DNA of 64,000 bases from Sphingobium sp. CCH11-B1. Its GTDB lineage: Bacteria > Pseudomonadota > Alphaproteobacteria > Sphingomonadales > Sphingomonadaceae. Below the pieces are notes generated by a model, which did no database searches, was not told the origin of the DNA, and saw only the letters and a program-made list of their open reading frames with translations. Below, piece after piece: positions 29,417 to 56,345 of the stretch (its first letter is position 1; each line of letters opens with the position of its first letter). The position numbers and the translations under genes are program-made. The stretch covers positions 41,821 to 105,820 of the forward strand of contig NZ_LSJY01000079.1 of assembly GCF_001556865.1 (NCBI RefSeq), in the 5' to 3' direction.

Positions 29417-30541
29417 GTGGGCCTTCCGCTCTCGTCAGTGCGCCCCTTGGGTGGCAGGGACCTTGACGTCGCCGTCGATGATCTGATCATCGATGCGATC
29501 GCGTGCGGCGCCTGGTTCGCCTTCAATCTGTCGGGCGGCAAGGACTCCACGGCGTCGGCACAGACCGTCATCGCCTTGCTGGATCATATGGGCCATCCTC
29601 GCGCACGGCGTATCGCAATCCACGCCGATCTCGGCCGCGCCGAATGGCGCTCGACGCCCGCGACCGTCGCCGTGATCGCCCGGCGTCTCGGCCTTCCGCT
29701 CGTCGTCGTGCGCCGCGGTGCCGGCGACATGGTCGCGCGCTGGGAGCAGCGCTTCGCCAATGGATGCCGGCGTTACGAGAATCTCGAACTTTATCATCTG
29801 ATCGGTCCCTGGAGTCAGGCCAACAAGCGCTTCTGCACCTCGGAACTAAAGGCGCAGGTGATCGGACCGGCGCTTGCCCGGCGGTTCAGGGGCGAGAAGG
29901 TCGTTTCAGTGATCGGCCTGCGCCGCGCCGAAAGCCATGGCCGCCGGGATACGCCAATATCGAGGCTAGACGTGCGCTTCGCCAAGCCGGGGAACGCCGC
30001 AGGCACCCGAATGATCAACTGGTATCCCGGCGTGGACTGGACAGCCGATGATGTTTTTGCGGTTCATGCCCACCACGACCTGCCGCTGCATGAGGCCTAT
30101 TGCCGCTTCGGCGCGACACGATTGTCCTGCGCCTTTTGCGTCCTTGCATCCGCCCACGATCTTGCCGCCGCTTCCGATGCCGACGACAATCGCGATCTCT
30201 ATCGTCATCTCGTCGGCATGGAGGCGGCTTCGACCTTCTCGTTCCAGCCTGGGCGCTGGCTTGCCGACGTAGCGCCGCGCCTGCTCACGCCGTCGCTGCA
30301 CCGGGATATAGTGCAGGCCAAAGCCGATGCCGTAGAGCGCCGTGCGATCGAGGCGGCAATGCCGCCCGGCCTGCGCTTCGTGAAGGGCAAGCCGCCACGG
30401 CTGCCGACGCTGGATGAGGCGAAGGCCGTTGCAGCGGCGCGGGCAGGCATCCTGAGCCGTCACGGCCTCGACAATCACTTCCCCGATGCCGCTTCAGTAC
30501 GCCGGAGGTTCGAGGAGCTCATCGATGCGCATGCGGCTTGA
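29417..30541 (+). CDS. PAPS-reductase-like PP-loop family protein
   Basis: A 374-residue enzyme of the adenine-nucleotide alpha-hydrolase superfamily. The PP-loop SGGKDST is at residues 39-45. Later features are NKRFCTSELKAQVI near 135 and the cysteine pair SCAFC near 236-239, as in PAPS-reductase-like and DndC-like proteins. Such enzymes activate a substrate by adenylation; cysteines often bind a cluster or carry sulfur. On plasmids these are frequent but uncharacterised. GTG start at 29417, after TTGGAGAAAC. Substrate and partner unknown. Confidence 0.8.
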   Translation: MGLPLSSVRPLGGRDLDVAVDDLIIDAIACGAWFAFNLSGGKDSTASAQTVIALLDHMGHPRARRIAIHADLGRAEWRSTPATVAVIARRLGLPLVVVRRGAGDMVARWEQRFANGCRRYENLELYHLIGPWSQANKRFCTSELKAQVIGPALARRFRGEKVVSVIGLRRAESHGRRDTPISRLDVRFAKPGNAAGTRMINWYPGVDWTADDVFAVHAHHDLPLHEAYCRFGATRLSCAFCVLASAHDLAAASDADDNRDLYRHLVGMEAASTFSFQPGRWLADVAPRLLTPSLHRDIVQAKADAVERRAIEAAMPPGLRFVKGKPPRLPTLDEAKAVAAARAGILSRHGLDNHFPDAASVRRRFEELIDAHAA

Positions 30542-30636
30542 AGGCTGAGCGGCCTGGTGACTGCGTGACAAAGGGGAGGCGGGGAGATCGGATGAGGCGA
30601 GCGGAATGATCCAACCGCCCCATCCGGAGTGCGCTC

Positions 30637-32328
30637 ATGTCCCTTCCCGCCACCATCCAGACTGCCGTCGGCCAGTCCATCCTCGGAAAAATCACAAGCC
30701 TCTATAATAATAGTGTCGCCGACGTTTTGAACGAGATTCTGCAAAATTGCCGCCGGGCCGGTGCGACGCGTGTCGATATCGACAGTTTCGAGCTGGCTGA
30801 CCGGCAGGTTCTGGTCATGCGCGACGATGGCAGCGGCATCGACGATCCCGCCAAGCTCGTGACGCTGGGCGATTCCGGCTGGGACAGCGCGATCGCGGAC
30901 CGCGAGGATCCTGCCGGCATGGGCGTGTTCAGCCTTGCCGGTCACCCCGTCGAAATCCGCTCCTTCTCGCCGGCAGCAGGCAAAGGCTGGTGCGTGACCA
31001 TCGCCCCCGATGCCTGGGAAAGGGCAACCCCGCTGGAAATCGAACCCTGTTCCATTGCGCGCGGCACCGAGATTCTTATCGATATGCCTGCGGCGTGGGC
31101 CAGCGCCCTGCCTGCTGCTGCGGCCACGGCGGCAACATTTTATCCGCTTCCCGTCCACTTCCAGGGAGAGCCGTGCGCCCAGCGGGATTTTCTCGCCGAG
31201 GCATACCGGACCGAGCAGTGGGACGGCTGCCGGATCGGTATCTTCCGGGGACGGAACTACCGTTCGTCAACCGAAGTCTCCATCAACTTCCACGGGCTTA
31301 CCGTGCCGTGCCCGATGCCCAGCGTGAGCGAGGTTGGCGGGGACGGGTGCTGGTATGTCCGGGTCGATATCGTGGACGCCCCCGCATTGCAGCTCGTCCT
31401 GCCGGCGCGCAAGGAAATGGTGCAGAATGCCGTCCTCGACACGCTACGCGAAGCCGCCGAAGCGGCGATCTACAGAGCTATCGCCGTCAGCGGCAGCCAT
31501 CGCCTTGCCCATGAGCAATGGCAGCGCGCCCATGCCTTGGGCGTGATCCTCCCCGAAGCTGCGCCCTGGCTATCGGGCTGGGTGCCACGCACTGCCGATT
31601 CCGACGGCACACTGCTCGGTGATCCTGTCGCCGGTACTGCCATGATACTGGTTCCATGCGAGGAGCCTCCTATCGAACAATGTGCGGGCCGTATCCTGTG
31701 CGAGGGGCTGCCGCTTGGCGGGACTCTCGTTCGCGAAGTCGCCGGGTTCGAAGGCTATGGATGGTATGACGCGCTGCCGCGTGTCTCGGATATCTCGTTC
31801 AACGTTGAGAGCGATGCCGGCATCTATGTCTATCGCGGCGGCGAGAGCCCTCCTCCCGGCATTGAATCGGGCCGGGTCACCCGCATCACCCTCGACGTTG
31901 CGGTCAAGCCGTCAGCAAGTGCGACCGGAGACGATAATCGCCATAGCTTTACGGCCGACGTTCTGATCGCACCGGATGATGGCTGGTACAGCGATCTCGA
32001 CCAGACGGTGATCCTGCTGACGCAGGACAGCGCCATTACGCCGCATGAACTGGCTTCGCTGATCGAGGATGCGTGCTTCACGCCGGGCGACGATAGCGGA
32101 GACGACAGCTGGGACACCCAGCACAGCAATTTCGAGAAGCGCGCACGCCATGTCGCCAATGAACTGCTGCTCGGGGAAGAGACCGCGATCCTCGAGCGTA
32201 TCCGCGATGTTCTCCTCGACGAGGTGAGCTGGCTTGTTCCCGAAGGGCGCCGCGTGACGATCCTCGCCGAACGCGGCCAAATGACCCTCTCCTATGTGCC
32301 GGGCGAAGATGCGGTCATGTCTGCCTGA
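30637..32328 (+). CDS. GHKL ATPase domain protein
   Basis: A 563-residue protein with an N-terminal Hsp90/MutL/histidine-kinase-like ATPase fold: N box VLNEILQNCRRAGAT (about residues 30-44), G1 box RDDGSGI (about 62-68) and G2-like AGMGVFSLAGH (about 90-100). The remaining ~400 residues are unknown, with an acidic patch (DSGDDSWD...) near residue 490. It could be an energy-driven chaperone or effector. It lies between the PP-loop genes; a G-run leader at 30571-30587 precedes it. ATG with GGAGTGCG upstream. Confidence 0.7.
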   Translation: MSLPATIQTAVGQSILGKITSLYNNSVADVLNEILQNCRRAGATRVDIDSFELADRQVLVMRDDGSGIDDPAKLVTLGDSGWDSAIADREDPAGMGVFSLAGHPVEIRSFSPAAGKGWCVTIAPDAWERATPLEIEPCSIARGTEILIDMPAAWASALPAAAATAATFYPLPVHFQGEPCAQRDFLAEAYRTEQWDGCRIGIFRGRNYRSSTEVSINFHGLTVPCPMPSVSEVGGDGCWYVRVDIVDAPALQLVLPARKEMVQNAVLDTLREAAEAAIYRAIAVSGSHRLAHEQWQRAHALGVILPEAAPWLSGWVPRTADSDGTLLGDPVAGTAMILVPCEEPPIEQCAGRILCEGLPLGGTLVREVAGFEGYGWYDALPRVSDISFNVESDAGIYVYRGGESPPPGIESGRVTRITLDVAVKPSASATGDDNRHSFTADVLIAPDDGWYSDLDQTVILLTQDSAITPHELASLIEDACFTPGDDSGDDSWDTQHSNFEKRARHVANELLLGEETAILERIRDVLLDEVSWLVPEGRRVTILAERGQMTLSYVPGEDAVMSA

Positions 32329-33038: not shown

Positions 33039-33452
33039 ATGGCAAGCCCTCAACAGAATGCGCGATTACGCGCTGTGCTTTCGCGCCCGCCGGTCGTTGC
33101 CGCCTGGCGCGCCGGCGTCGATTCCACCGCGATGGTCATCGAACTCGTCGAGCGCGGCGAAACCCCGGACATGGTACTGATTGCCCAGATGCCGAAAAAG
33201 CCGCAAACCCTGTCCTTCATTCCGATATTTCAGGCGTGGATGGATACCCATCGGGTTCCGTACGCCGTGGTTCGTTATGAACCGCGGCGCTTCAAGCATT
33301 GGCCGCCTTATGCGGATCTTCTCGAAAACTGCCTGACTAACGGCCCCCTGCCGTCGATCGCTTTTTCCAGGTCGAGCTGCTCCTTAGGTCCAGGCTCGCC
33401 GAATGTCTTCCATGCCGGAGTGGATGAAGTAGCAGGCCGGACGACGCGCTAA
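33039..33452 (+). pseudogene. Truncated PP-loop protein cut by the metal cassette
   Basis: The first ~115 residues belong to a plasmid PP-loop family: AAWRAGVDSTAMVIELVERG carries the nucleotide-binding loop (degenerate SGGVDS), followed by DMVLIAQMPKKPQT and YEPRRFKHWPPYADLLENCL, then FSRSSCSL. After that Cys-Ser-Leu (about 33384) the family resemblance stops and the frame runs 22 residues into unrelated sequence to 33452. The break lies 40 bp before the inverted repeats at the cassette boundary, so the gene was probably cut by an insertion or deletion there. GGAGTGGCTC before the ATG. Confidence 0.6.
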
Positions 33453-33489
33453 CCCAGAAAGCTGGCGGCGGCCGACCTACTACTTCATC
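33423..33489. repeat. Imperfect inverted repeat at the cassette left boundary
   Basis: GATGAAGTAG (33423-33432) is mirrored by CTACTTCATC (33480-33489), and inner bases (AGGCCGG against CCGACCT) continue the symmetry imperfectly. The outer copy points away from the cassette. A third copy, AGATGAAGTAG, is at 36757-36767. Confidence 0.5.
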
Positions 33490-33880
33490 TTGGAGCGAGT
33501 GCGTCGAGAATCTGGCACTCCGCAATCGTGCCGCCGTCGCACAAAGCGATCACGGCGCTGAGTTCGCGGCGCAGGGCCGCCAGGTCCGCGAGCTTGCGAT
33601 CGATTTCAGCAAGATGCGAATTAGCAATAGCATCGACCGAGCGACAGTCGCGCTGGTCCTGCGAGGAGAGGCTGAGCAGCTCGCGCACTTGGTCGAGCGA
33701 GAAACCGAGATCGCGCGCGCGGCGAATGAAGCTGAGCCGCGCCAGCGCGTCCTGGCCGTAGGCGCGATAGTTGCCGCCGGTTCGATCGGGCTTCGCGAGC
33801 AGGCCGATCCGCTCATAGTAGCGGATCGTCTCCACCTTGGTGTTCGTCGCCTTGCCGAGATTGCCGATCGTGAACGCCAT
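33485..33880 (-). CDS. MerR-family metal-responsive regulator
   Basis: A 131-residue MerR family regulator. The winged HTH is at residues 1-40 (IGNLGKATNTKVETIRYYER then IGLL), followed by the dimerisation helix and a C-terminal metal-binding region with Cys in RDCRSVDAI, His in NSHLAEID, and Cys in ALCDGG and AECQIL, a pattern close to Cd/Pb/Zn-type members. The ATG at 33880 abuts the promoter it controls. Its operators are at 33890-33906 and 36630-36644. The stop lies inside the left terminal repeat. Confidence 0.85.
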   Translation of the reverse strand: MAFTIGNLGKATNTKVETIRYYERIGLLAKPDRTGGNYRAYGQDALARLSFIRRARDLGFSLDQVRELLSLSSQDQRDCRSVDAIANSHLAEIDRKLADLAALRRELSAVIALCDGGTIAECQILDALAPR

Positions 33881-33884
33881 CGCC

Positions 33885-33915
33885 TTGACCCTGTAGTTGC
33901 TACAGGCCGTAGATA
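33885..33915 (+). promoter_or_regulatory. MerR-controlled promoter of the CDF gene
   Basis: A -35 TTGACC (33885-33890), a 19-bp spacer and a -10 TAGATA (33910-33915). The spacer holds a perfect 7-3-7 dyad, CCTGTAGTTGCTACAGG (33890-33906). The over-long spacer with a central dyad is diagnostic for MerR activators, which untwist the DNA on metal binding. It reads towards the CDF gene (33948). Confidence 0.85.
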
Positions 33916-33947
33916 GGACGTCACGACGAGCAAAGCGAGGTGACGAC

Positions 33948-34619
33948 ATGGCTGGCGGATGCTGCGGAGGCCACGAAACAACGGCGCCGACCCAGGACAA
34001 GGTATGGCGGCGCGTGCTCTGGATCGCGTTGGCGATCAACGTGGCCATGTTCGGCGTCGAGATCATGGCGGGTGTGATTGCCCACTCAGCGTCGCTCAAA
34101 GCCGATGCACTCGACTTTCTCGGCGATGCCGCCAACTATGCGATCAGCCTGGGCGTCGCCGGGCTGGCGCTCAAATGGCGCGCACGAGCGGCGCTCGCGA
34201 AGGGCGCATCGCTGCTTCTGCTGGGGCTGTGGATACTGGCGAGCACGGTGGGGATGGCGATCGCCGGAACGCTTCCGAAAGCCGAGACGATGGGCATCAT
34301 CGGCACGGTTGCGCTGCTCGCGAACCTCGCCTGCGCCGCCATGCTCTGGCGCTACCGCGAAGGCGACGCCAATCGGCGCTCGGTGTGGATCTGCTCGCGC
34401 AACGACGTTATCGGCAACCTTGCCGTGGTCGCTGCAGCGGCCGGCGTGTTCGGAACCGGCACAGGGTGGCCTGACATCACCGTCGCGGCGATCCTCGCCG
34501 GACTCGGCGTCAGCGGCGGGTGGCAGATCGTGCGACAAGCGCTCGGCGAAATGCGCGGCAACCGCGCGCCCGAGCGCGGGCTCACTCTCCGCCAAACCGC
34601 AGGCGTATCCCGCCATTAA
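33948..34619 (+). CDS. Cation diffusion facilitator family exporter
   Basis: A 223-residue inner-membrane cation transporter. The N-terminus has a metal-binding-like GGCCGGH. The membrane part has six hydrophobic helices; HSASLKADALDFLGDAANY in helix 2 matches the CDF metal-site pattern (S-x-A-D-x3-D), and the helix-5 counterpart is CSRNDVIGNL. It is shorter than CzcD because the C-terminal cytoplasmic domain is almost absent. It should export divalent metals into the periplasm. Under the MerR promoter at 33885-33915. Its 3' end overlaps the convergent TonB receptor gene by 38 bp. Confidence 0.82.
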   Translation: MAGGCCGGHETTAPTQDKVWRRVLWIALAINVAMFGVEIMAGVIAHSASLKADALDFLGDAANYAISLGVAGLALKWRARAALAKGASLLLLGLWILASTVGMAIAGTLPKAETMGIIGTVALLANLACAAMLWRYREGDANRRSVWICSRNDVIGNLAVVAAAAGVFGTGTGWPDITVAAILAGLGVSGGWQIVRQALGEMRGNRAPERGLTLRQTAGVSRH

Positions 34620-36552
34620 CCGTGAACCCATCGGTTGGCGCCCATGCATCGACCGTCCAGCGTCCGTCGGGCGCCCGCTGCGGCAGGAGCAGCGGATCGT
34701 ACTTGGTCTGGCGGATGTCGAGCAGGTTCTCGGCGTTGAGGAACAGGCTGACCCTTCCCAGCACAAGCTCGCCCATCGCGCCCAGTTCGAAATAGGGCCG
34801 GCTCCGGGTGCGATAGGGGTTGTCGTCGAGCTGCTGGCGGCCAGTGTAATAGGCCTCCAGGCCGAACCTGCCCCGCCCGTGCTTCTCCCACATGGCGACG
34901 AGCCCGGCGCTGTGGCGCGGCGTGATCGGCACCGTCCGGCGACCCATGCGGTCGGGATCGGGCTCGCTGGCGTCGACATAGACATAGCTGCCGGTGACCG
35001 TGAACGCCCGCCATCGATAGCGCAGGAACAGCTCGGCGCCCCGCGTGCGGGTGAGGCCGTCGGCGTTGACCAGCGCGACGCGGTCGGGAGCGATGGTCGT
35101 GAGCTGCACGGCGTTGTCGATGTTGGAGGCGAAGAAGGTGACGCTCGCTTCGATCGAACCGCGGGCATAGCCGAGATCGAGCGAGGCGGTGTCGGCGGTC
35201 TCGGCCCTCAGGTTGCCGATCGGCGCGAGCCGCGAGAGGCCTGCTTCCTCGATCTCCTCGACGAACGGCGTCGGCGCGTAGAAGCCGCGGCCGAGCGAAG
35301 CCCTCACGGTCCACGGGCCGGGCCGATAGAGCAGCGACAGCCGCGGGCTTACGCGCGAGCCATACTCGCTGTGGGCGTCCCACCTGGCGCTGCCCGCCAG
35401 CGTGACATCGCGCGCGACGTCGTACTCCACTTGCGCGAAAAGCGCCGGGACGGTGTAGCTGTAGTTGAAATCCGGGAAGGTCCGTGAACGGAATAGATCG
35501 GCCTGGAAGGCGGCGCCGGCGAGCCAGGAGGTCGTGCCCGAACGGCCCGAGAAGGAGGCCTCGCCGAAGAAGGTCCGGCGCCGGTTCTGCTCGATGGTGG
35601 CGCCGAAGCGGCGATCGTCGCGCTGGGTCATGCCCGAGGCGCGCAGGTGCAGCGTGCCCGGCGCGACGGGAATCTCGGCAACCAGCCCGCCGTCGAAGCG
35701 CGTGCTGTCCAGCGTCTGCGGGAATGGCTGGCCATCGGGCGCGGCGCCGCCCGGCAACGTGCCGCCTTGGCGCTGCTCGGTCATCGCGCCGGCGGTCAGA
35801 TAAACACTCGCGCCGTCTGCGCCAGTCCAGAACAGACGCGGCCGCACGGTCCAGCGTTCATAGGTAGGCATGTCAACCCAGCTATCGCCGTCCAAGTCCT
35901 GCCGGCTCTGGCGGTTGAACCCGCCGGTGACCGAGGTGCTCCAGTCGCCGCCGAGCGGGGTCGAGGCATAGGCGGTGACATCCTGCCCGTCGCGGCTCGT
36001 CGCGTTCAGCACGAGATCGCCTTCGAGCGCATCGCCCGGACGGCGCGAGACGAGGTTGATGACGCCGCCGAGAGCGGACGGGCCATACAGCGCCGAGGCG
36101 CTGCCCTTGATGACCTCGACTTGGCCGAGATCGGTGGGCGGGATCTGAAGCAGGCCGATGGCCGGTGCCTGCCCGCCGTAGAGCGGGAGGCCATCGGAGA
36201 GGAGCTGGGTGTAGCGCCCCTTCATGCCCTGCATGCGGATGTTCGCGGCGCCGAGCGAGGGGGATGTGACCTGGGTCCGGACGCCCGGCGTCTCGGCGAC
36301 GAGCATGGCGATGTTGCCCGGCGTCATCAGGAGCTTCTCTTCGATCTCCTCGCGGTTGATGACCTCGACGCGGATCGGCTCGTCCTGCACGCGGCGTCCG
36401 GTGCGGGTCGCCTGGACGACGATGTCCTCGCCTTCCTCGGCCTCGTCCTGACCGTGATCCTCGGCTTGCGCCGCCGTCTGTGCGCGCGCCGGCACGCTGC
36501 TCATGCCGAGCGCCAACAGCGACAGACCTGAAACGATGACACTGCGTCGCAC
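34582..36552 (-). CDS. TonB-dependent receptor in a metal cassette
   Basis: A 656-residue outer-membrane TonB-dependent receptor. A signal peptide ends near residue 24 (ARAQ), then an acidic stretch and IVVQATRTGRRVQDEPIRVEV, a TonB-box-like start. The plug follows (LLMTPGNIAMLVAETPGVRT, ASALYGPSALGGVINLVSRR) and then a barrel of ~480 residues ending in GGIRLRFGGE. Substrate not evident; a metal or metal chelate is likely because its promoter has the same MerR operator as the CDF exporter. Having a receptor induced together with an exporter is unusual. Convergent overlap with the CDF gene. Confidence 0.88.
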   Translation of the reverse strand: MRRSVIVSGLSLLALGMSSVPARAQTAAQAEDHGQDEAEEGEDIVVQATRTGRRVQDEPIRVEVINREEIEEKLLMTPGNIAMLVAETPGVRTQVTSPSLGAANIRMQGMKGRYTQLLSDGLPLYGGQAPAIGLLQIPPTDLGQVEVIKGSASALYGPSALGGVINLVSRRPGDALEGDLVLNATSRDGQDVTAYASTPLGGDWSTSVTGGFNRQSRQDLDGDSWVDMPTYERWTVRPRLFWTGADGASVYLTAGAMTEQRQGGTLPGGAAPDGQPFPQTLDSTRFDGGLVAEIPVAPGTLHLRASGMTQRDDRRFGATIEQNRRRTFFGEASFSGRSGTTSWLAGAAFQADLFRSRTFPDFNYSYTVPALFAQVEYDVARDVTLAGSARWDAHSEYGSRVSPRLSLLYRPGPWTVRASLGRGFYAPTPFVEEIEEAGLSRLAPIGNLRAETADTASLDLGYARGSIEASVTFFASNIDNAVQLTTIAPDRVALVNADGLTRTRGAELFLRYRWRAFTVTGSYVYVDASEPDPDRMGRRTVPITPRHSAGLVAMWEKHGRGRFGLEAYYTGRQQLDDNPYRTRSRPYFELGAMGELVLGRVSLFLNAENLLDIRQTKYDPLLLPQRAPDGRWTVDAWAPTDGFTVNGGIRLRFGGE

Positions 36553-36619
36553 CTGTTCTCTTTCTCCTTTTCAGAACGCGGCGGCGACCAATGGCCACGC
36601 TGCTCATAGCATGGAGGCG

Positions 36620-36650
36620 CGTCTACAGGCTGTAGCAGCTACAGGGTCAA
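36620..36650 (-). promoter_or_regulatory. MerR-controlled promoter of the TonB receptor gene
   Basis: Read on the minus strand: -35 TTGACC (36650-36645), 19-bp spacer, -10 TAGACG (36625-36620). The spacer holds the dyad CTGTAG-CTG-CTACAG (36644-36630), nearly identical to the CDF operator. It ends 68 bp before the receptor start codon at 36552. Confidence 0.8.
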
Positions 36651-36769
36651 GCGTAATGTCTTGCGATAGGCATGATCTGCCCAAACCCCGACCCGATGCG
36701 TTCCATGCATCCTGTAAGAACATCAATCTACCGAACGATCCCGGTTCCAGGCCCCTAGATGAAGTAGGG

Positions 36770-37110
36770 TTATCGCTGGCGAAGCTAGGACTTGACGATA
36801 TGGTATCGATCATCCGAGCCACGGCGGATGCACCGGGTATCCCGGTCGGCTCCCCGATCCTGTTCGACGCTGACATGGCGATCATCTAACACGCCTCCGC
36901 CTATCTGCTTGAACATGCCGAACTCAGTGGCCGCGCGCAGGCGTCGGAAACCGAGCGGACTTACGGCGAGCATCTTCACGTCTGGTTCGATGCGCTTGAG
37001 CAATCAGAAATCGGTTGGCGCGAGGCCGACGAGCGCGTCATCGCGGCCTATCGCAACCGGATGCTCGAAAACCCCAACGCACACGCCGGGCGTCGAAGGC
37101 CGCTTGCTCG
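36770..37110 (+). pseudogene. Remnant of a tyrosine-type site-specific integrase (N-terminal part)
   Basis: Read in one frame, this stretch gives GIPVGSPILFDADMAII, a stop at 36887-36889, then AYLLEHAELSGRAQASETER, TYGEHLHVWFDALEQSEIGW and EADERVIAAYRNRMLENPN. That matches the N-terminal SAM-like domain of plasmid tyrosine recombinases. After about 37090 similarity is lost and the catalytic domain is missing. The gene therefore has a nonsense codon and lacks its 3' part. It lies directly beyond the right terminal repeat of the metal cassette and downstream of the TcmP operon. Confidence 0.6.
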
Positions 37111-37216: not shown

Positions 37217-38047
37217 CTACCCGAACGAATTTGCTGTTGCATCGAATTCCCTGATCGCGCCGATCTGCTCCTCGACCAGTGATTGCAGCGCCTCGAACGC
37301 CGTGTAGCAATGCTGGCATTCGGTAGTGAGGAGGCCGATAATATCCGCCAAGGCCAGCGGCTCCCGGCCGCCGAACCCATAGCAGAACCCGCCGGTTTTC
37401 TCATTCCTGTTGCGCGTGACCATGCCGGTCATGCCGATGACAAAACGCGGCGAAAACCGGTGATTATAGGCGTTGCGAAAATCCCCCGTCGCATCCCGAA
37501 ACGCTTTGGCGCCAATCGCTTCGACCGCCCGCTTGAAGCGATTGTATGTCTTGCCCCAACCCCGGCCGTAAATGCCGCTCGTGTTCAGATCGATCTCGAC
37601 ATCGAGCGGCAGATCGTCCTGCCATGACGCAAAATCGCGGGTCATATTGGCTTGGTGGCACAGATGAGCCGCAGCAAAGGCCAAGCGCGACTTGATCGCG
37701 TAGGGCAGGTTCACTGCGTTGGTCGCCAGAATGTCTATGAATTCATGGGTGGCCGCCATCTTCGCATCGTCATCCATCCTTTCGATGACAATGGCCCAGG
37801 CTTTGAGGCGCTGCACATGGTTGGTGAGATCGTTCAGTGTATTCGCCAGCTCGGTCGAGAACTCATCCAGCATCTGCGCGTAGGGCATCCAGACCGCGTT
37901 CAATTTGTCCGGCAATTCGTACCAACGATAGGGCATGAAGCGTCCGATCAGCGGCAGTCCGGCACGGGCCTCCCGATAGGCGCGATATAGCCGGACGTCG
38001 TCTTCAACCTCGTTGCCAGTGATCGCCGAAGAGTCCGACATGGTCAT
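37217..38047 (-). CDS. HEPN-like protein, last gene of the TcmP operon
   Basis: A 276-residue, mainly helical soluble protein I cannot place in a named family. Residues 190-197 read FRNAYNHR, giving R191-N192-x3-H196, the RNxxxH signature of HEPN ribonucleases, in a helical context as expected. Its ATG overlaps the stop of the upstream TcmP gene by 4 bp, so it belongs to the four-gene operon. A nucleolytic effector role is inferred from the motif; no toxin activity is shown. A start at 38041 is also possible. Confidence 0.6.
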   Translation of the reverse strand: MTMSDSSAITGNEVEDDVRLYRAYREARAGLPLIGRFMPYRWYELPDKLNAVWMPYAQMLDEFSTELANTLNDLTNHVQRLKAWAIVIERMDDDAKMAATHEFIDILATNAVNLPYAIKSRLAFAAAHLCHQANMTRDFASWQDDLPLDVEIDLNTSGIYGRGWGKTYNRFKRAVEAIGAKAFRDATGDFRNAYNHRFSPRFVIGMTGMVTRNRNEKTGGFCYGFGGREPLALADIIGLLTTECQHCYTAFEALQSLVEEQIGAIREFDATANSFG

Positions 38048-39306
38048 CCCAGCCTGCTGAACATGCTGCGCTGACGGGGCAGGATCAGCCGATCGTCCCA
38101 GGCGATGGTTTTGGCCCGCGGCTTCTCCTTGCCCTCGTTGGAGACGATCATGAGTTCGCCTTCGTCGCGCAGCAGCCGCAACTGGCTGGACAGGATTTCG
38201 GAGGTGACGGGCGTGTCGTTGCAGTTGCCGGCGAAGAGCTGCTCAACCACGAGTCCACCCAGGTCGCCCTGATTAGCCGCATGGATCATGCGCGGCAGTT
38301 GATCGATCACGGCCGCCTCGGACCTGGCACGCGCGTCGTCATCGAACATGAACTGCATCAGATCCTGCCGCAGATCCTTCGCCGGATTGAACCCGAGGGC
38401 ATGGAACCCCGCGCCACCATGATGCTGGAAGTGGTTATTGATCCGCCAATGGAGCTTGCCCATTTCGTCCCGCGCCTGGCGGTGGCCCGAAAGGTGGAGG
38501 AGCCAATAAGACCGATGGCTCTCCACAGAGTGGATGAAGAAGGGCGTATAGAACAGAGCGCCCGTGCGGGACTGGACATGGCGGTAGAGCCCGTTCTGGA
38601 TCAGAAATCGCCAGCCGTCCCCATTCTTGAGTTCGAGAAGCGCACGGACATCTTCCCGCTGAAGGTCGAGGCCGAGCAGGGCTTCCGATTCCGCGCGCTT
38701 TTCGGTCAGGAAGTCGATCAGCGCATCGACGGCGAAAGTCAGCAGGATTTCCGGGTTCTTGATCTCGTTCAGGATCGACCGGATCGTCGTGAAACGGACA
38801 TCACTCCAGCCATACTGGTCGAGGAAGAACAACGAGCGCTGCGCGGTTCCCTTGGCCCGTATCCGCGCGACAATGTCCGGGCATGCCTCCTCGAAGGTCG
38901 AACACTGCAGGAAGATGTCCGTGCCGAGGCGCGAGCCATAGCCACGCTTGATCAGGAGATCGCGCAGGAAGGCGATGTGATCGGCATTCTCGTCGACGAA
39001 AACGAAATCGGCGCGAACCTCAAATCCCTTGATCCGCGCGGCATTGAGGGTCTTGTCTGCCTCCTCGACCGCGCGGAGCAACCGCAAGGGGGAGCCCTCG
39101 GCATCGCCGCCGCGGTGCCGATAGAGGCCGCCGCCGCAAAACCCGTCGACTATCGTCAGGTTCAACATCGTCTGGCTGAACGTGCGCGTCAGCCGTTCGA
39201 CGTAGATGCCGAGATACTGCTCGAAGATCTCGTGCTTGGCGACGCTGTGGTCGCCGAGGATCGGCAGCGCTTCGCCAAGGCGCCAGTCGTAGTGCTTCCT
39301 CGTCAC
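38044..39306 (-). CDS. tcmP: Three-Cys-motif partner protein TcmP (first copy, 420 aa)
   Basis: A 420-residue TcmP family protein. Residues 51-60, TIVDGFCGGG, resemble methyltransferase motif I; FVFVDENADHIAFLRDLL resembles motif II; and SLFFLDQYGW sits where motif IV would be. The family name comes from genome neighbours that carry a three-cysteine motif (DUF5131), as here. SAM-dependent activity is inferred from these motifs. It overlaps both neighbours by 4 bp. The C-terminal ~90 residues, ending PRQRSMFSRLG, resemble a winged-helix tail (inference). Confidence 0.78.
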   Translation of the reverse strand: MTRKHYDWRLGEALPILGDHSVAKHEIFEQYLGIYVERLTRTFSQTMLNLTIVDGFCGGGLYRHRGGDAEGSPLRLLRAVEEADKTLNAARIKGFEVRADFVFVDENADHIAFLRDLLIKRGYGSRLGTDIFLQCSTFEEACPDIVARIRAKGTAQRSLFFLDQYGWSDVRFTTIRSILNEIKNPEILLTFAVDALIDFLTEKRAESEALLGLDLQREDVRALLELKNGDGWRFLIQNGLYRHVQSRTGALFYTPFFIHSVESHRSYWLLHLSGHRQARDEMGKLHWRINNHFQHHGGAGFHALGFNPAKDLRQDLMQFMFDDDARARSEAAVIDQLPRMIHAANQGDLGGLVVEQLFAGNCNDTPVTSEILSSQLRLLRDEGELMIVSNEGKEKPRAKTIAWDDRLILPRQRSMFSRLG

Positions 39307-40217
39307 GAAGCGGCGGACTTTCGTCGCTTGGGGCCGAGATTCTCGCCCATGCTCAGGATATAGTCGGCGCCCTGCAGCCCTTTGGAATGCGGCCCCGCCC
39401 AGAGCAGATAATAGAGCGGCGCGCCTTTCGAATTGCGGATCAGCCGCGGGGTGGAAACGTGACCGAACGCGGATTTGAGCCGTGCCCGGTAGAGCTGCAG
39501 CAGACGCTCGGCATAATCCTCGCGCTTCTCGTAGCCCCCGCTGTTGAAAAGGCCGCGACTGCGTTCGCGGTACACCTCGTCAAACCATGCACGCGATCCG
39601 AAATAGGCATCCAGCGTCTTCGCCCAGGCGTCGGGGATTTCGCCCGAATTGGGCAACATCCGCTGGATCGCCATGCTCAGCGCGAAATTGACGACCACCT
39701 CGAAAATGCCCGTGTCGGCAAGTTTCTCGACGCTGGCCCATTCCAGATGCGCGCCGAAGGGATCGAGGAAAGCGACGCCGCGATGGCTCGATCGGGAGAT
39801 CGGCTTGGCCGCTACCCACTCGATGCCTTCGGCAGCGCCCATGGGAAGGATATCGATTTCACGGGATCCCTCGAACTCTCGCCTGACCGCCTCCAGTTCC
39901 GCGCATCGCTTCGGATCGTTTTCGATGAAGACATAGCGCGAGAACGGATTGGCGACGTTGAGCGCGATCCGGGGCGAGCCGTCGATCAGCTCGGCCTGGT
40001 CCGCGTCCGCCTCGGTATCCAGCTCGAACAGCGGGATGACCTCGCTGGCCGGCGCGGCATCCTTGCGGATCCGCGCCTGGCCGCCGCCCGCGAAGGCATC
40101 GACATAGATCGTGCGCCAGGGCTGGTTCTTGAGAACCTTGGTGTAGAAGTCGAGATAGCGGGCGAGGGCATCCAGCTTCTCCCGGGCCCAGGGGCCGACA
40201 ACCGCAATGTCCGGCAT
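39303..40217 (-). CDS. tcmP: Three-Cys-motif partner protein TcmP (second copy, 304 aa)
   Basis: A 304-residue paralogue of the neighbouring TcmP protein: YVDAFAGGGQARIRK at about 39-53, YVFIENDPKRCAELEAVR near 115, AFLDPFGAHLEW near 165. The order matches Rossmann-type methyltransferase motifs I, II and IV, with a DPFG in place of DPPY. It lacks the long C-terminal part of the 420-residue copy. Its start codon shares one base with the stop of the DUF5131 gene (TAATG at 40219-40215), and it overlaps the next gene by 4 bp. The nature of the substrate (DNA, RNA or protein) is unknown. Confidence 0.78.
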   Translation of the reverse strand: MPDIAVVGPWAREKLDALARYLDFYTKVLKNQPWRTIYVDAFAGGGQARIRKDAAPASEVIPLFELDTEADADQAELIDGSPRIALNVANPFSRYVFIENDPKRCAELEAVRREFEGSREIDILPMGAAEGIEWVAAKPISRSSHRGVAFLDPFGAHLEWASVEKLADTGIFEVVVNFALSMAIQRMLPNSGEIPDAWAKTLDAYFGSRAWFDEVYRERSRGLFNSGGYEKREDYAERLLQLYRARLKSAFGHVSTPRLIRNSKGAPLYYLLWAGPHSKGLQGADYILSMGENLGPKRRKSAAS

Positions 40218-40954
40218 TACAGCGCCTCCAACCGCGTTTCGGGGAACTGGTTCCATTCCTGACCGTCAAGTTCCCGGCCTCCGGACTTGGGCCGCAGCCC
40301 GCCCCATTGCTTGAAGAAGAAGGCGACATTTTGCGCGAGGCACTGATCGCGCACTTCGCGGACCCATTCGAGATGAATCGGCCTGGCGCCGGGGCCGGAT
40401 TCGCCGCCGGCGATGACCCAGTCGATGCCAGTCAGATCCATCTCGCCGACAGCCCCGATGAGCGGCTCGACTGAAAGGAACCGGACTCCGGCGGGGCTGT
40501 CGCGCAGATGGGTTATCCGGGGGACGCCGCTGGCGTCTTCGACCGACACGCCGCACCAGATGTGGCTGGGGCCGCGCTCTTCGCCATATCGCGCGCGCAG
40601 GTAATTGCGCATCGGCGAACTGCGCTTGGTCAGGACCTGGAACGTGTGCCAGTGCGCCGCTTCCATGGTGTCGAACACGCTGTCGATGAAATGGCGCGGC
40701 ACCTTTTTGTGAAAGAGGTCGCTCATGGAATTCACGAAGATCATGCGCGGACGCTTCCAGCGCAGCGGCTGTCCCACCCGCTCTGGCCGCAACGTCAGGT
40801 CGAAGCCGTTCTCGAACGGGTGGCCGGGTACTCCCCGCCAGCGCTCCGCAAAACGGGCAGCGTAGCAATTATCGCAACCGCGTGTGATCTTCGTGCAGCC
40901 CGTAACCGGATTCCACGTTGCATCCGTCCATTCGATTGCCGTTCCGTCAGACAT
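40217..40954 (-). CDS. DUF5131 (Gp37/Gp68-like) protein with three-Cys motif
   Basis: A 245-residue protein of the phage Gp37/Gp68 (DUF5131) family. C20-x6-C27-x2-C30 (GCTKITRGCDNCYAARFAERW without its last residues is the core) follows the IEWTDATWNPVTG opening; later MIFVNSMSDLFH, VLTKRS and FLSVEPLIG are typical. The cysteines suggest an iron-sulfur cluster, possibly radical-SAM-like, but the spacing is not the classic C-x3-C-x2-C. It is the first gene of the operon with two TcmP proteins and the HEPN protein, 69 bp downstream of hipA on the same strand. Confidence 0.85.
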   Translation of the reverse strand: MSDGTAIEWTDATWNPVTGCTKITRGCDNCYAARFAERWRGVPGHPFENGFDLTLRPERVGQPLRWKRPRMIFVNSMSDLFHKKVPRHFIDSVFDTMEAAHWHTFQVLTKRSSPMRNYLRARYGEERGPSHIWCGVSVEDASGVPRITHLRDSPAGVRFLSVEPLIGAVGEMDLTGIDWVIAGGESGPGARPIHLEWVREVRDQCLAQNVAFFFKQWGGLRPKSGGRELDGQEWNQFPETRLEAL

Positions 40955-41023: not shown

Positions 41024-42319
41024 TCAATTCTCTCTTCCGATCGCTTTTTGTGCGGCTTCGCGCTCCTCGTGCTCGAACGCGTCGGCAAAATCATCCAGTT
41101 CGGCCGCGCTGATGCCAAGCCGGGCGCCTTCTTCGCGCCAGGCCGCGACCGCGGCCTCGACTTCGGCGAGAATGGCACGCGCCTGATCCGCCGCTATCCT
41201 GAAATAGGGTATCACCGAGAGGAGCGCTTCGATCGTCGCTTCCGGCCCGGTGTCTTCCGATATCCAGGTCTTGAGCTCGCGCAGGCGCTCCGGGAACGGA
41301 TTGATGTCGAACGCTGGCGCCAGCCGCCATAGTCCGCGCTCGACATGCAGGAAGCCATGGTTGAGCAGATGATCGTCGACGTTGGTGATGAGGATCGAGA
41401 ATGCCATCCGGCGCCACAGCTCCTCGCTGTCAGCCTGCGGTGCCGCGCCGTTCTGGCGCAACGCATCGACGATTTCCGTATAGGCATGTTCGCCATGATC
41501 GCCGGGCTCAGCCCCCAGCATTGTCGCTGCTGAAATATACATGAGCCGCCCGCCTGTCGCAGGACGGTCGAACCGCCGGATCAACGCAACGGGTGTCCCG
41601 TCGCTGTCGATGATGCGCGCGTGCGCAGCATCGATGCCAGCGCGGCGAGCCAGACGCATGGCCAGCACCTCACCCTTGGTCACCGCACGTTCGTCGCTGA
41701 TGCTCGGAAACTTGCCGATAGCCAGCCGGCCATCCTCGTCGAGCACCGTGCACTTTGGGCGCAGGCCTCCGAGAGAAGTTCCACGCCCGCGCAAATAGGC
41801 AAGGTCGGCTTCGGTTTCCGTACCGCGCTCGACCGCATGGCTGGCAGCAAGCAGTTGTCCGATTTCGATCAGGGGCGGCGTCGTTCGTCGCCCGTCCTCC
41901 TGTGCCCGCTGAAAGACCCCGTCTTCATCCTGGAGCCGCAGCGCGCCGACACGGCTGACGTCATCGACCGCGAGCAGATAGTCGAGCGAATTGAGCGCCT
42001 GTCCGGCGACAGGCGCGCCGCGCCGCCTTGCCTCCTGCCGGCGCTTGGCGTGATCGCGCTGGATCACGCGTCGCCCCCATCCATCGGGCTCGGTGTCCGC
42101 TATGGCGGGATGGAAGACCGAGCCGTTGCCCTGCTTGCGATGAAACTGTGGACCCGCGACGAGTCGCAGCCCCGGCTCGATGGCGAACCTGTCCGGGCTG
42201 GTAAGCCAGGCCTCGTCATATTCGAACGAGGCGCTTTCGCGGGCGCCCTGCTGATCATAACGCAGAACGCCGACGGGACGGGCCTCGTCGCCCATGAATA
42301 TACGGATGGTGCGGTTCAC
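41024..42319 (-). CDS. hipA: HipA-like serine/threonine kinase toxin
   Basis: A 431-residue HipA kinase. Landmarks: TSLGGLRPKC near 185 (the Gly-rich regulatory loop equivalent), ITNVDDHLLNHGFL near 315 (catalytic loop with D and N) and LAPAFDINPFP near 335 (the DFG-equivalent). Relatives phosphorylate tRNA synthetases and cause growth arrest. Its start overlaps the HipB-like gene by 4 bp, the usual antitoxin-toxin order. The N-terminal subdomain with YDQQGARESASFEYDEAWL is standard for HipA. Confidence 0.9.
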   Translation of the reverse strand: MNRTIRIFMGDEARPVGVLRYDQQGARESASFEYDEAWLTSPDRFAIEPGLRLVAGPQFHRKQGNGSVFHPAIADTEPDGWGRRVIQRDHAKRRQEARRRGAPVAGQALNSLDYLLAVDDVSRVGALRLQDEDGVFQRAQEDGRRTTPPLIEIGQLLAASHAVERGTETEADLAYLRGRGTSLGGLRPKCTVLDEDGRLAIGKFPSISDERAVTKGEVLAMRLARRAGIDAAHARIIDSDGTPVALIRRFDRPATGGRLMYISAATMLGAEPGDHGEHAYTEIVDALRQNGAAPQADSEELWRRMAFSILITNVDDHLLNHGFLHVERGLWRLAPAFDINPFPERLRELKTWISEDTGPEATIEALLSVIPYFRIAADQARAILAEVEAAVAAWREEGARLGISAAELDDFADAFEHEEREAAQKAIGREN

Positions 42320-42648
42320 AGGGGTCTCGCGGTCTTGGGCGGACGCACGCGCTTCGGGATGCGCTGCTGGTCGAGCAGCAGTCCCTGCTCGTCGTGGCGC
42401 GCATCGAGCACGTCGCCGAGCACGTCGTTGAAGCCGAGCACGAAAAAGGCCATGGCATAAGTGCCGAGTGCCACCGAAGGATCGCCCTTTTCGATCTTGA
42501 GATATGTGCTCTTGGCGACGCCCAGACGCTCCGCCATCATCTGAACCGTGAGGCTGCGCTTGCGCCGGGCGAGCGCAATGTCCGCCCCTAGCTTGGCAAG
42601 GGAGCGCCTGACACGCATCGGCAGAGTTTCAGCGACAGTCGACTTCAC
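42316..42648 (-). CDS. hipB: HipB-like antitoxin with XRE helix-turn-helix
   Basis: A 110-residue protein with an XRE HTH at about residues 22-55 (GADIALARRKRSLTVQMMAE, then GVAKSTYLKIEKG). The C-terminal tail is basic, as in HipB proteins that bind HipA and DNA. GTG at 42648 is chosen because GAGG sits 8 bp upstream; the ATG at 42618 (MRVRRSL) is an alternative. It should repress hipBA from the dyad at 42661-42697. Confidence 0.82.
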   Translation of the reverse strand: MKSTVAETLPMRVRRSLAKLGADIALARRKRSLTVQMMAERLGVAKSTYLKIEKGDPSVALGTYAMAFFVLGFNDVLGDVLDARHDEQGLLLDQQRIPKRVRPPKTARPL

Positions 42649-54110: not shown

Positions 54111-54266
54111 GCGGGGCTCCTGACAGCAGAGCCGATGCGGCATGCCCGGAAGGCTACGTTCTGCCGCCATATCCCGTCATCCCTGGGACCTTGGCTTCAC
54201 GCCGCTCCTGGTCCTGGGGATCTGCGTCCGCCTCCGGGTGCGCCGCCTGGCCAGGGAGCAGCAGTC

Positions 54267-56345
54267 ATGAGCATTTTCCGCAACGACACATTGGGATCCT
54301 GGACGAGGGGCGGCCAGTCGATCGTTCACAATGTCCGCATGACCACCCAGGTCTTCTTCCAAACCGTGATCGCCTGCTTCGTGCTCTGGGTGATGGGGGT
54401 AGGCTGGTATGCGATGGAGAAGTCCACCGGCTATGAGCGCTTCGTCCTCACCAAGCTGGCCGAAGCCAGTTTCAAGTCGAATGCCGCACCCGGCACCAAT
54501 GATCCGATCCTGTTTAAGACCCCAGCCGGGCAGCAATACTGGACCTCGGCGGACTGGCTGCTGGCTTCGGGCCTGGCGAAGAAGACCTTGCACAGCTTCG
54601 AGCTTTACCTGATCCACGGCGCGCTGCTCTCCGGTGTGTTCGCGCTCGCCGCGCTCGCCTTCGCCTGGTTCAGCTTTACCCGGACGGGCAGGGGCCTCGG
54701 CTCCAACGAATATATTCGCGGTGCCCGTTTCGGCACGGTCAGGCAGATCAAGCGGGCGCTCTGGCGGCAGCGACGAGGGAGTTTTTCCATCGGGGGCGTC
54801 CCCGTGCCCGATGCCTTCGAGCCCGAACATATCCTGCTGTGCGGAGCACCCGGCACCGGCAAGACCAACCTCATCGTCAAGATGCTCGAGGGCATCCGCA
54901 AGGAGGGTAAGCGGGCGATCATCTATGACACCGCCGGCACCTTCGTCGAAAAATTCTACCGGCCGGGGAAGGACATCATCCTCAACCCGCTCGACAAGCG
55001 CACCGCTTGCTGGTCGCCCTGGGGGGATGTCCCGCGCGAATATCATTACGACCAGATCGCGGAATCGACGATCCCCGACAAGACCGGCGATCCCTTCTGG
55101 GCCAAGGCTGCGCGCGGGACGCTGGTGGCGGTGCTGCGCAAGCTTGCGCGCGAGGGCGAGATGCTGGTCTCGGTGCTATTGGACCGGCTGCTGCGCTCCA
55201 AGCTGAAGGACCTTGCCGCCTATGCTGCGGGCACCGATGCCGCCGCATTCATCAGCATGGAAGGGGAACGAACCTCGGCGGGCATCCAGGCTGAACTGGC
55301 TTCGGTGATGCGCAGCTTCTCCTATCTGGATGACACGAGGAAGGGGCTGTCGATCCGCGAATGGGTGCAGAATGAGGAGGGCGACAACTGGCTGTTCATC
55401 ACGGTCAAGGCCGACCAACTGCCCTCGCTCCGTCCCCTGATCACGGTCTGGCTCGACATCGCGATTTCGGCGATCATGAGTCTGACGCCGGACCGCAAAC
55501 GCCGCCTCTATTGCGTCATCGACGAACTGCCGACCTTGCAGAAACTGCCCTCGCTCTCCGACTTCCTCGCCCGTGCCCGCAAATATGGCGGCTGCGGCAT
55601 ATTGGGGTTCCAGTCCTACCCGCAGCTCGAAGCGACCTACGGTATCCAGGATGCGGCCGCGATCACCGGCTATTGTTCGACCTGGGTGGCGCTCAGGGCC
55701 AACGACACCCCCACCGCCAAGCATGTCTCGGAAAACCTCGGCCAGGTCGAACAGGTCGAGGCCAATGAGGGTATGAGCTACGGCGTCAACGACATGCGCG
55801 ATGGGGTCAACCTCTCGCGCATGCAGGTTACACGCCCTCTGGTCATGCACACCGAGGTCACCAATCTCCCCAACTTGTCGGGTTATTTGCGGTTCGGGCG
55901 CAATCTGCCGGTGGTGCGGTTCGACGATCGGTTCAATACGGTGGCTACCATCGCCGAAGCCTTTGTCGAGCGGACGGAACCCCCGGTGCGCGATACCGAT
56001 GGCAAGGCGATTATCGACGCCGTCCATGCGGACTCGGATGCCCGCGAGGCCGAAGAACGCCAGCGTGCGGATCAGAAAATGCCGGTAAGAGCTGCCAAAG
56101 CCGCGCCCAAAGCCAAGCAAAAGCCCTTGGACCGGCCCGACCTCTTTACCCGAACCCCTCTGGAAGAACCGTCGCCTGTGGCAGGCGAGAAGCCATCTTC
56201 CGGGGGGGCGACTGGTAACGAGCCGGACACGCCCAACATGTCGCCGCAGGACTTCACACTGGCACCGCGCCGGGGCAACCAGCGCATCGAGATCGATGTC
56301 TATGACCGCGAGAATGGCCCCGCGAAGAAGGCCCGGCCGGCATGA
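54267..56345 (+). CDS. traD: Type IV coupling protein TraD
   Basis: A 692-residue inner-membrane ATPase that links the relaxosome to the type IV secretion channel. Two membrane helices lie at about 28-50 and 110-135. Walker A is ILLCGAPGTGKTNLIV near 192; Walker B/VirD4-like YCVIDELPTLQKLPSLSDFL near 415; a later GFQSYPQLEATYG motif is typical. The C-terminal tail (about 610-692) is charged and Pro-rich. ATG 54267, after AGGGAGCAGCAGTC, begins the recognisable N-terminus. The stop overlaps the relaxase start by 4 bp. Confidence 0.92.
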   Translation: MSIFRNDTLGSWTRGGQSIVHNVRMTTQVFFQTVIACFVLWVMGVGWYAMEKSTGYERFVLTKLAEASFKSNAAPGTNDPILFKTPAGQQYWTSADWLLASGLAKKTLHSFELYLIHGALLSGVFALAALAFAWFSFTRTGRGLGSNEYIRGARFGTVRQIKRALWRQRRGSFSIGGVPVPDAFEPEHILLCGAPGTGKTNLIVKMLEGIRKEGKRAIIYDTAGTFVEKFYRPGKDIILNPLDKRTACWSPWGDVPREYHYDQIAESTIPDKTGDPFWAKAARGTLVAVLRKLAREGEMLVSVLLDRLLRSKLKDLAAYAAGTDAAAFISMEGERTSAGIQAELASVMRSFSYLDDTRKGLSIREWVQNEEGDNWLFITVKADQLPSLRPLITVWLDIAISAIMSLTPDRKRRLYCVIDELPTLQKLPSLSDFLARARKYGGCGILGFQSYPQLEATYGIQDAAAITGYCSTWVALRANDTPTAKHVSENLGQVEQVEANEGMSYGVNDMRDGVNLSRMQVTRPLVMHTEVTNLPNLSGYLRFGRNLPVVRFDDRFNTVATIAEAFVERTEPPVRDTDGKAIIDAVHADSDAREAEERQRADQKMPVRAAKAAPKAKQKPLDRPDLFTRTPLEEPSPVAGEKPSSGGATGNEPDTPNMSPQDFTLAPRRGNQRIEIDVYDRENGPAKKARPA

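What the first reader, a model, noticed from the sequence alone, without database searches (positions are those of the whole stretch)
37217..40954. Fully coupled DUF5131 - TcmP - TcmP - HEPN operon
Four genes overlap by 1, 4 and 4 bp, so they are made as one unit. Seen: two divergent TcmP proteins with methyltransferase-like motifs I, II and IV (VDGFCGGG/VDAFAGGG; DENADH/ENDPKR; DQYG/DPFG), a three-Cys DUF5131 protein (C20, C27, C30) and a helical protein with an intact RNxxxH (R191, N192, H196). Known: TcmP is named for neighbouring DUF5131-like genes; HEPN proteins with RNxxxH are often RNases. Inference: a modification plus RNase system, possibly anti-phage or anti-plasmid, in which the HEPN protein is the effector. 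I know of no described system with exactly this set.
Basis: partly seen in the sequence, partly recalled or inferred. Interest (0 to 1): 0.78.

Follow-up and report, generated by a model that had tools for sequence, protein, structure and literature searches.

The report
TcmP modification operon plus roaming HEPN-like gene
Four tightly coupled genes on a conjugative DNA element encode what looks like a three-gene nucleic-acid modification module that is already listed as an anti-phage candidate, with a likely RNA-cutting protein added behind it that in other sampled bacteria mostly occurs without the module.

The parts
40217..40954 (-). DUF5131 (Gp37/Gp68) protein, 245 aa, first gene; matches PADLOC PDC-M41B and PDC-M30B
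   Evidence: PF07505 E 4.2e-96; PDLC04639 6e-100, PDLC04569 4e-99; TIGR04471 rSAM_mob_pairA 3.7e-19 but below its cut-off
40865..40897 (-). three-Cys motif C20-x6-C27-x2-C30 of DUF5131
   Evidence: invariant in 118 of 118 ungapped of 121 aligned
39303..40217 (-). TcmP1, 304 aa, PDC-M41A type; VDAFAGGG and FLDPFG motifs; start overlaps DUF5131 stop by 1 base (TAATG)
   Evidence: TIGR04474 189.7 bits; PDLC04635 8.9e-65
38044..39306 (-). TcmP2, 420 aa, PDC-M30A type; predicted RlmJ-like methyltransferase fold; GTG start overlaps TcmP1 by 4 bases (GTGA)
38131..38394 (-). GMT-like winged-helix domain of TcmP2 (residues 305-392)
   Evidence: PF22560 33.3 bits against cut-off 27; residues 295-323 of the model have pLDDT below 50
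37217..38047 (-). HEPN-like protein, 276 aa, last gene; ATG overlaps TcmP2 stop by 4 bases (ATGA)
   Evidence: no Pfam/NCBIfam/PADLOC hit; no consistent Pfam hit among 40 relatives; 226 relatives; mostly helical model pLDDT 87.7
37460..37477 (-). R191-N192-A-Y-N-H196 motif
   Evidence: R and H in 119/119 ungapped listed relatives; N/H/D at 192

Best explanation
The operon is a mosaic on a conjugative element. Genes 1-3 (DUF5131, TcmP1, TcmP2) are a nucleic-acid modification module. DUF5131 is an iron-sulphur, probably radical-SAM-like enzyme. The two TcmP are SAM-dependent methyltransferases of RlmJ-like fold, the second carrying a winged helix for target or partner binding. The module most likely marks RNA (DNA is the alternative) and most likely serves defence against phages or other elements. 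Gene 4 is a separate, itinerant HEPN-like RNase of defence islands. It has been recruited behind the module and is translated coupled to TcmP2; on infection or loss of control it would cleave RNA and stop growth. Shown: gene order, overlaps, family matches, predicted methyltransferase fold of TcmP2, conserved motif, co-divergence, occurrence of gene 4 without the module. Inferred: radical-SAM chemistry, RNA as substrate, TcmP1 fold, RNase activity, defence, any dialogue between module and HEPN.
Confidence: 0.55

Rival explanations
1. One integrated four-gene system: the module marks self RNA or DNA, and the HEPN protein is the dedicated effector, released when the mark is missing or foreign.
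For: Overlaps of 1, 4 and 4 bases. Window and Sphingobium sp. D43FB (L006) share all four genes, each with dN/dS 0.04-0.09 at similar dS 1.7-2.0. The three most similar HEPN-like loci (about 74% or more) all carry DUF5131/TcmP or remnants.
Against: HEPN-like gene without the others in 31 of 34 loci; module without HEPN-like gene in 28 of 29 Sphingomonadales genomes. L002 keeps an intact HEPN-like frame after losing the module. In L006 about 1.2 kb with an unrelated 328-aa gene lies between TcmP2 and HEPN.
Confidence: 0.2
2. Toxin-antitoxin-like pair: gene 4 is a toxin held in check by TcmP2 (or by its modification), as the MNT nucleotidyltransferase holds HepT.
For: ATGA coupling. In L011 a conflict-type nucleotidyltransferase (PF20697, E 1.1e-71) lies about 127 bp upstream of the homologue. 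HepT-type toxins are among the fold matches.
Against: No fixed partner gene across loci. L002 keeps an intact HEPN-like frame without a TcmP gene. No nucleotidyltransferase among the four genes.
Confidence: 0.12
3. Gene 4 is not a HEPN RNase but a helical protein of other function (for example DNA- or protein-binding); the RNxxxH is a coincidence of a conserved loop.
For: No profile match; no significant Foldseek match; motif loop 196-210 has pLDDT below 50.
Against: R and H in 119 of 119 ungapped listed relatives; the residue after R is N, H or D in that set, the three residues named for HEPN; position near the end of helix 3 with a beta-hairpin following, as described for Csx1.
Confidence: 0.22

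Closest known systems
PADLOC candidates PDC-M30 and PDC-M41 (TcmP + DUF5131)
   Same: TcmP2 and TcmP1 match the A components, DUF5131 both B components; same neighbourhood
   Different: here one DUF5131 is shared by one TcmP of each type, and a HEPN-like gene is coupled behind them; I saw no experimental test of either candidate
RlmJ, 23S rRNA A2030 m6A methyltransferase
   Different: motif IV DQYG/DPFG instead of DPPY; extra C-terminal winged helix in TcmP2; on mobile DNA beside a DUF5131 gene
Hna (PADLOC PDC-S28) loci of rhizobia
   Same: in S. meliloti 1021 pSymA (L222) and R. rhizogenes (L224) an 845-aa helicase gene is followed by TcmP1, with TcmP2 and DUF5131 facing it; Hna has 845 residues (PMC13381803, passages); SMa2245 (Hna) and SMa2243 (TcmP) are consecutive rows in Table 1 of PMC12445080 (passages)
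   Different: no relative of this helicase in the window (tblastn); the paper passages seen do not speak of a role for TcmP
HEPN-MNT (HepT-MntA) type VII toxin-antitoxin
   Different: twice as long, no nucleotidyltransferase partner, no profile similarity

Membership tests
PADLOC PDC-M30 / PDC-M41 | TcmP (A) component matches | tested here: met
   TcmP2 PDC-M30A 8.3e-26, TcmP1 PDC-M41A 8.9e-65
PADLOC PDC-M30 / PDC-M41 | adjacent DUF5131 (B) component | tested here: met
   6e-100 and 4e-99, overlapping gene
PADLOC PDC-M30 / PDC-M41 | anti-phage activity | not testable with these tools
   only a published correlation for PDC-M30
TcmP (TIGR04474) | score over the curated cut-off | tested here: met
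   205.7 and 189.7 bits against 53
RlmJ-type m6A methyltransferase | variant Rossmann methyltransferase fold of RlmJ | tested here: met
RlmJ-type m6A methyltransferase | catalytic Lys (motif X) and Asp (motif IV) | tested here: inconclusive
   K24 and D163 invariant in 13 sequences; equivalence to K18/D164 inferred from spacing and alignment ends, not superposed; Y4 and H6 not tested
RlmJ-type m6A methyltransferase | motif IV (N/D)PP(Y/F/W) | tested here: not met
   DQYG in TcmP2, DPFG in TcmP1; so it is not filed as an RlmJ or m6A enzyme
radical SAM | CX3CX2C cluster motif (recalled) | tested here: not met
   CX6CX2C, invariant
radical SAM | match to a radical-SAM model | tested here: inconclusive
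   TIGR04471 E 3.7e-19 but 69 bits against cut-off 355
HEPN superfamily | Rx4-6H with polar N/D/H after R | tested here: met
   definition in PMC3710099
[quoted passage not shown]
   H154-176, short helices 181-187 and 190-196 carrying the motif, final helix 233-275; loop confidence low
HEPN superfamily | four-helix HEPN fold | tested here: inconclusive
HEPN superfamily | profile-profile similarity to known families | tested here: inconclusive
   probability 0.1% against HepT and Abi_2 only, small profiles
HEPN superfamily | endoRNase activity | not testable with these tools
   needs an assay
HEPN-MNT toxin-antitoxin | adjacent MNT nucleotidyltransferase | tested here: not met
   no such gene among the four or the HipA/HTH pair upstream

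The most novel reading that the evidence does not exclude
An RNA-level analogue of restriction-modification: DUF5131 and two RlmJ-like TcmP enzymes write a composite mark on RNA (tRNA or rRNA), and the co-translated HEPN protein cleaves RNA lacking the mark, so that phage interference with the mark or its enzymes triggers RNA cleavage and growth arrest. In other genomes the same HEPN-like family would plug into other sensors.
Probability: 0.1. Interest if true: 0.88.

Novelty: new variant of a known kind. Interest (0 to 1): 0.5.

Why it matters
TcmP is named for its three-Cys neighbour, not for an activity. A predicted RlmJ-like fold with a matching Lys and Asp gives a testable activity for a family present in about a tenth of sampled Sphingomonadales genomes (29 of 296), in viral contigs and on plasmids, and correlated in print with phage resistance. 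The neighbouring hna genes in rhizobia offer a laboratory system to test it. The HEPN-like family matches no model in Pfam, NCBIfam or PADLOC and recurs near defence genes, so it is a candidate effector that finders built on these libraries would miss.

Tried and rejected
Integrase idea: some homologues are named 'integrase' in public records. Neighbour lists show no recombinase fixed beside the gene and neither fold search listed one, so I treat the name as an annotation error.

'Appended specifically behind defence genes': of 13 nearest same-strand upstream genes, 7 match PADLOC at E <= 1e-3 and 4 at E < 1e-10. The control of 20 genes drawn at random from 85, leaving out the two nearest genes on each side, gave 7 of 20 and 3 of 20. 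The 13 were chosen by me from loci with a same-strand upstream gene. So 'found near defence genes' stands; 'prefers to sit behind defence genes' does not. I had no background from ordinary genome regions.

Tight coupling as a special trait of the HEPN family: an upstream same-strand gene ends within 120 bases of the residue-21 codon in 15 of 41 loci. L027 looks coupled by eye but the gene caller took an antisense frame. In the same loci 109 of 421 adjacent gene pairs lie 20 bases or less apart, so coupling is not unusual. Gene calls were a simple GC-frame method.

Gene picking: the ORF picker missed genes hidden by longer antisense frames (TcmP in L039 and L071; DUF5131 in L062 and L071). I therefore repeated the count on all six frames; it left the 31 of 34 unchanged and raised DUF5131 beside TcmP from 26 to 28 of 29.

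A third hna neighbour: the annotated DEAD/DEAH helicase near TcmP1 in A. tumefaciens pAt (L223) shows no similarity to the S. meliloti 845-residue helicase (tblastn), so I do not count it.

Profile-profile test of HEPN membership with HepT and Abi_2: negative. HEPN_Cthe2314 (PF18730) gave one sub-cut-off match in 115 genomes and was not used. Foldseek in PDB and BFVD: no hit at E <= 0.001. Among the 50 VIA rows shown the only HEPN entries I recognise are the HepT-type toxins. The Ex3[KR] motif of many HEPN families I did not find by reading the sequence. PHROGs was not searched.

TcmP1 in viral contigs: none found with the six patterns used. Operon DNA in plasmids: two records with matches to 1% of the query only. 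Shared contig lengths show co-location on one contig, not gene order. The order DUF5131-TcmP1-TcmP2 I saw only in the window, L001/G001 and L006.

The S. meliloti 1021 record has no annotation in the collection; its helicase, TcmP and DUF5131 frames were read from ORFs and PADLOC.
Full report
What is there. Four minus-strand genes run from 40954 to 37217. Their junctions read TAATG, GTGA and ATGA, so the overlaps of 1, 4 and 4 bases are real. In order they encode DUF5131 (PF07505), two proteins over the TcmP cut-off (TIGR04474), and a 276-residue protein without any family match. Forty relatives gave only scattered weak Pfam matches. A HipA-like gene and an HTH gene lie 69 bases upstream in the same direction (41024-42648), so the transcript may be longer; L006 has no HipA match. 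The window carries a TrwB-type coupling protein and a TrwC relaxase at 54-59 kb, so it looks like a conjugative element. The operon region is 99.7% identical over 8,954 bases to a Sphingobium fluviale contig (L001).

The core is known as a candidate. PADLOC lists TcmP plus DUF5131 as phage-defence candidates: TcmP1 matches PDC-M41A, TcmP2 PDC-M30A, and DUF5131 both B components. Such candidates come from guilt-by-embedding (PMC10855318, passages). The same paper counts PDC-M30 in 32 of 100 P. aeruginosa strains, 68.8% of them phage-resistant. In Sphingomonadales 29 of 296 genomes have TcmP over the cut-off, and 28 of the 29 loci hold DUF5131; the exception, L051, is 2.3 kb long. Of 80 viral DUF5131 loci, 23 hold a TcmP too, 50 hold DUF5131 alone, and in 7 neither was called. 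A TcmP2 relative is fused to DUF5131 (P0217). The lists of the 120 best relatives of TcmP1 and TcmP2 share 21 contig lengths, against a mean of 0.8 and a maximum of 3 when lengths are shifted. TcmP1 and TcmP2 therefore tend to travel together. The same test for the HEPN-like list and TcmP2 gives 3, within its control (mean 0.7, maximum 3).

What DUF5131 is. C20, C27 and C30 are invariant in 118 of 118 ungapped relatives of 121. There is a match to a radical-SAM model below its cut-off. The spacing is not that of ordinary radical-SAM enzymes (recalled). Radical-SAM chemistry is an inference. No solved relative of the three core proteins turned up by sequence.

Is it one system? Among 34 genome loci of the HEPN-like family only L001 and L006 hold intact DUF5131 and TcmP, and L002 holds remnants. 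The other 31 hold none in up to 8 kb each side, several cut by contig ends. Five of seven plasmid records with the gene were read and none has them; nor do L077 and L079 (about 1.5 kb flanks) and viral L095. In 296 Sphingomonadales genomes the gene is in 3 and TcmP over the cut-off in 29, with one genome in common, G001, whose contig coordinates match L001. In L002 the end of DUF5131, TcmP1 and all but the last 28 residues of TcmP2 are missing, yet the HEPN-like frame is intact and 260 of 276 residues match L006 (a 4.7-kb metagenome contig). In L006 about 1.2 kb with an unrelated 328-residue gene and a decayed second copy of the TcmP2 3' end lies between TcmP2 and gene 4.

What speaks for cooperation. 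Window and L006 have all four genes at dS 1.7-2.0, each with dN/dS 0.04-0.09 (near saturation, so approximate). The linkage has been kept for a long time in this lineage, and gene 4 evolves fastest (73.7% identity against 78-88%).

Where gene 4 lives elsewhere. Upstream neighbours include Dsr1 (L019), IetS-like (L013), AbiJ_NTD4/PDC-S32 (L021), Fic (L008) and a conflict-type nucleotidyltransferase (L011); a type IIG restriction enzyme lies downstream in L015. Of the 13 upstream genes scanned against PADLOC, 6 gave no match at E <= 1e-3. The control of 20 more distant genes also holds AbiEii, GajA and PDC-S52, so defence genes are common around it but the nearest upstream gene is not demonstrably richer.

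A side result. In S. meliloti 1021 pSymA (L222) and R. rhizogenes (L224) an 845-residue helicase (PADLOC PDC-S28, the two 94% identical) lies just upstream of TcmP1, with TcmP2 and DUF5131 facing it; in L224 an IS element lies between the two TcmP genes. Hna has 845 residues (PMC13381803, passages), and PMC12445080 (passages) names SMa2245 as Hna and, in the next table row, SMa2243 as TcmP. I take the L222 helicase to be Hna from this. The text held does not show whether the two rows are grouped as one unit. The passages of PMC13381803 for six terms do not mention methyltransferases. Abstracts describe Hna as an anti-phage system.

Novelty. Searches for TcmP, DUF5131, PDC-M30/M41 and related names listed no paper whose title or abstract start studies the module, and no report of the four-gene set. 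Of the papers that name TcmP or PDC-M30 I looked at passages of PMC12445080, PMC12429752 and PMC10855318; PMC11878078 I saw only in the listing. Most subscription papers are not in that library.

Verdict. Observation confirmed. Interpretation partly supported. The core is a new arrangement of a listed candidate, with a better idea of what TcmP is. Gene 4 is an unmodelled, itinerant HEPN-like family recruited in one lineage.

Noticed in passing
L222 4355-10016, L224 1848-8751: The 845-aa Hna-type helicase gene (PDC-S28) lies beside TcmP1, TcmP2 and DUF5131 in two rhizobial plasmids.
   Followed up: partly
window 33380-37094: About 3.7 kb with a MerR-like regulator (by reading), a cation-efflux gene and a TonB-type receptor (by reading) interrupts DNA that is collinear in S. 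fluviale, where 1.1 kb lies instead; a fragment near 36900-37100 read to me like a tyrosine-recombinase N-terminus (not tested).
   Followed up: partly
L006 6793-8000; L002 2295-3286: A 328-aa gene without Pfam or PADLOC match, and a decayed TcmP2 3' end, lie between TcmP2 and the HEPN-like gene.
   Followed up: partly
P0089, P0104 (459 aa); also L016, L018: HEPN-like relatives with a C-terminal extension of about 190 residues of unknown kind.
   Followed up: no
viral contigs L103-L182: DUF5131 is very common in viral contigs (at least 595 matches) and in 50 of the 80 fetched loci no TcmP was called beside it.
   Followed up: no
window 54135-59323: TrwB-type coupling protein and TrwC relaxase: the window looks like a conjugative element.
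   Followed up: no
window 41024-42648: HipA-like and HTH genes lie 69 bases upstream of the operon on the same strand.
   Followed up: no
window 29417-32328: PAPS-reductase-like protein with weak BrxP/DndC matches next to a protein with weak HSP90-type ATPase matches, possibly another conflict gene pair.
   Followed up: no
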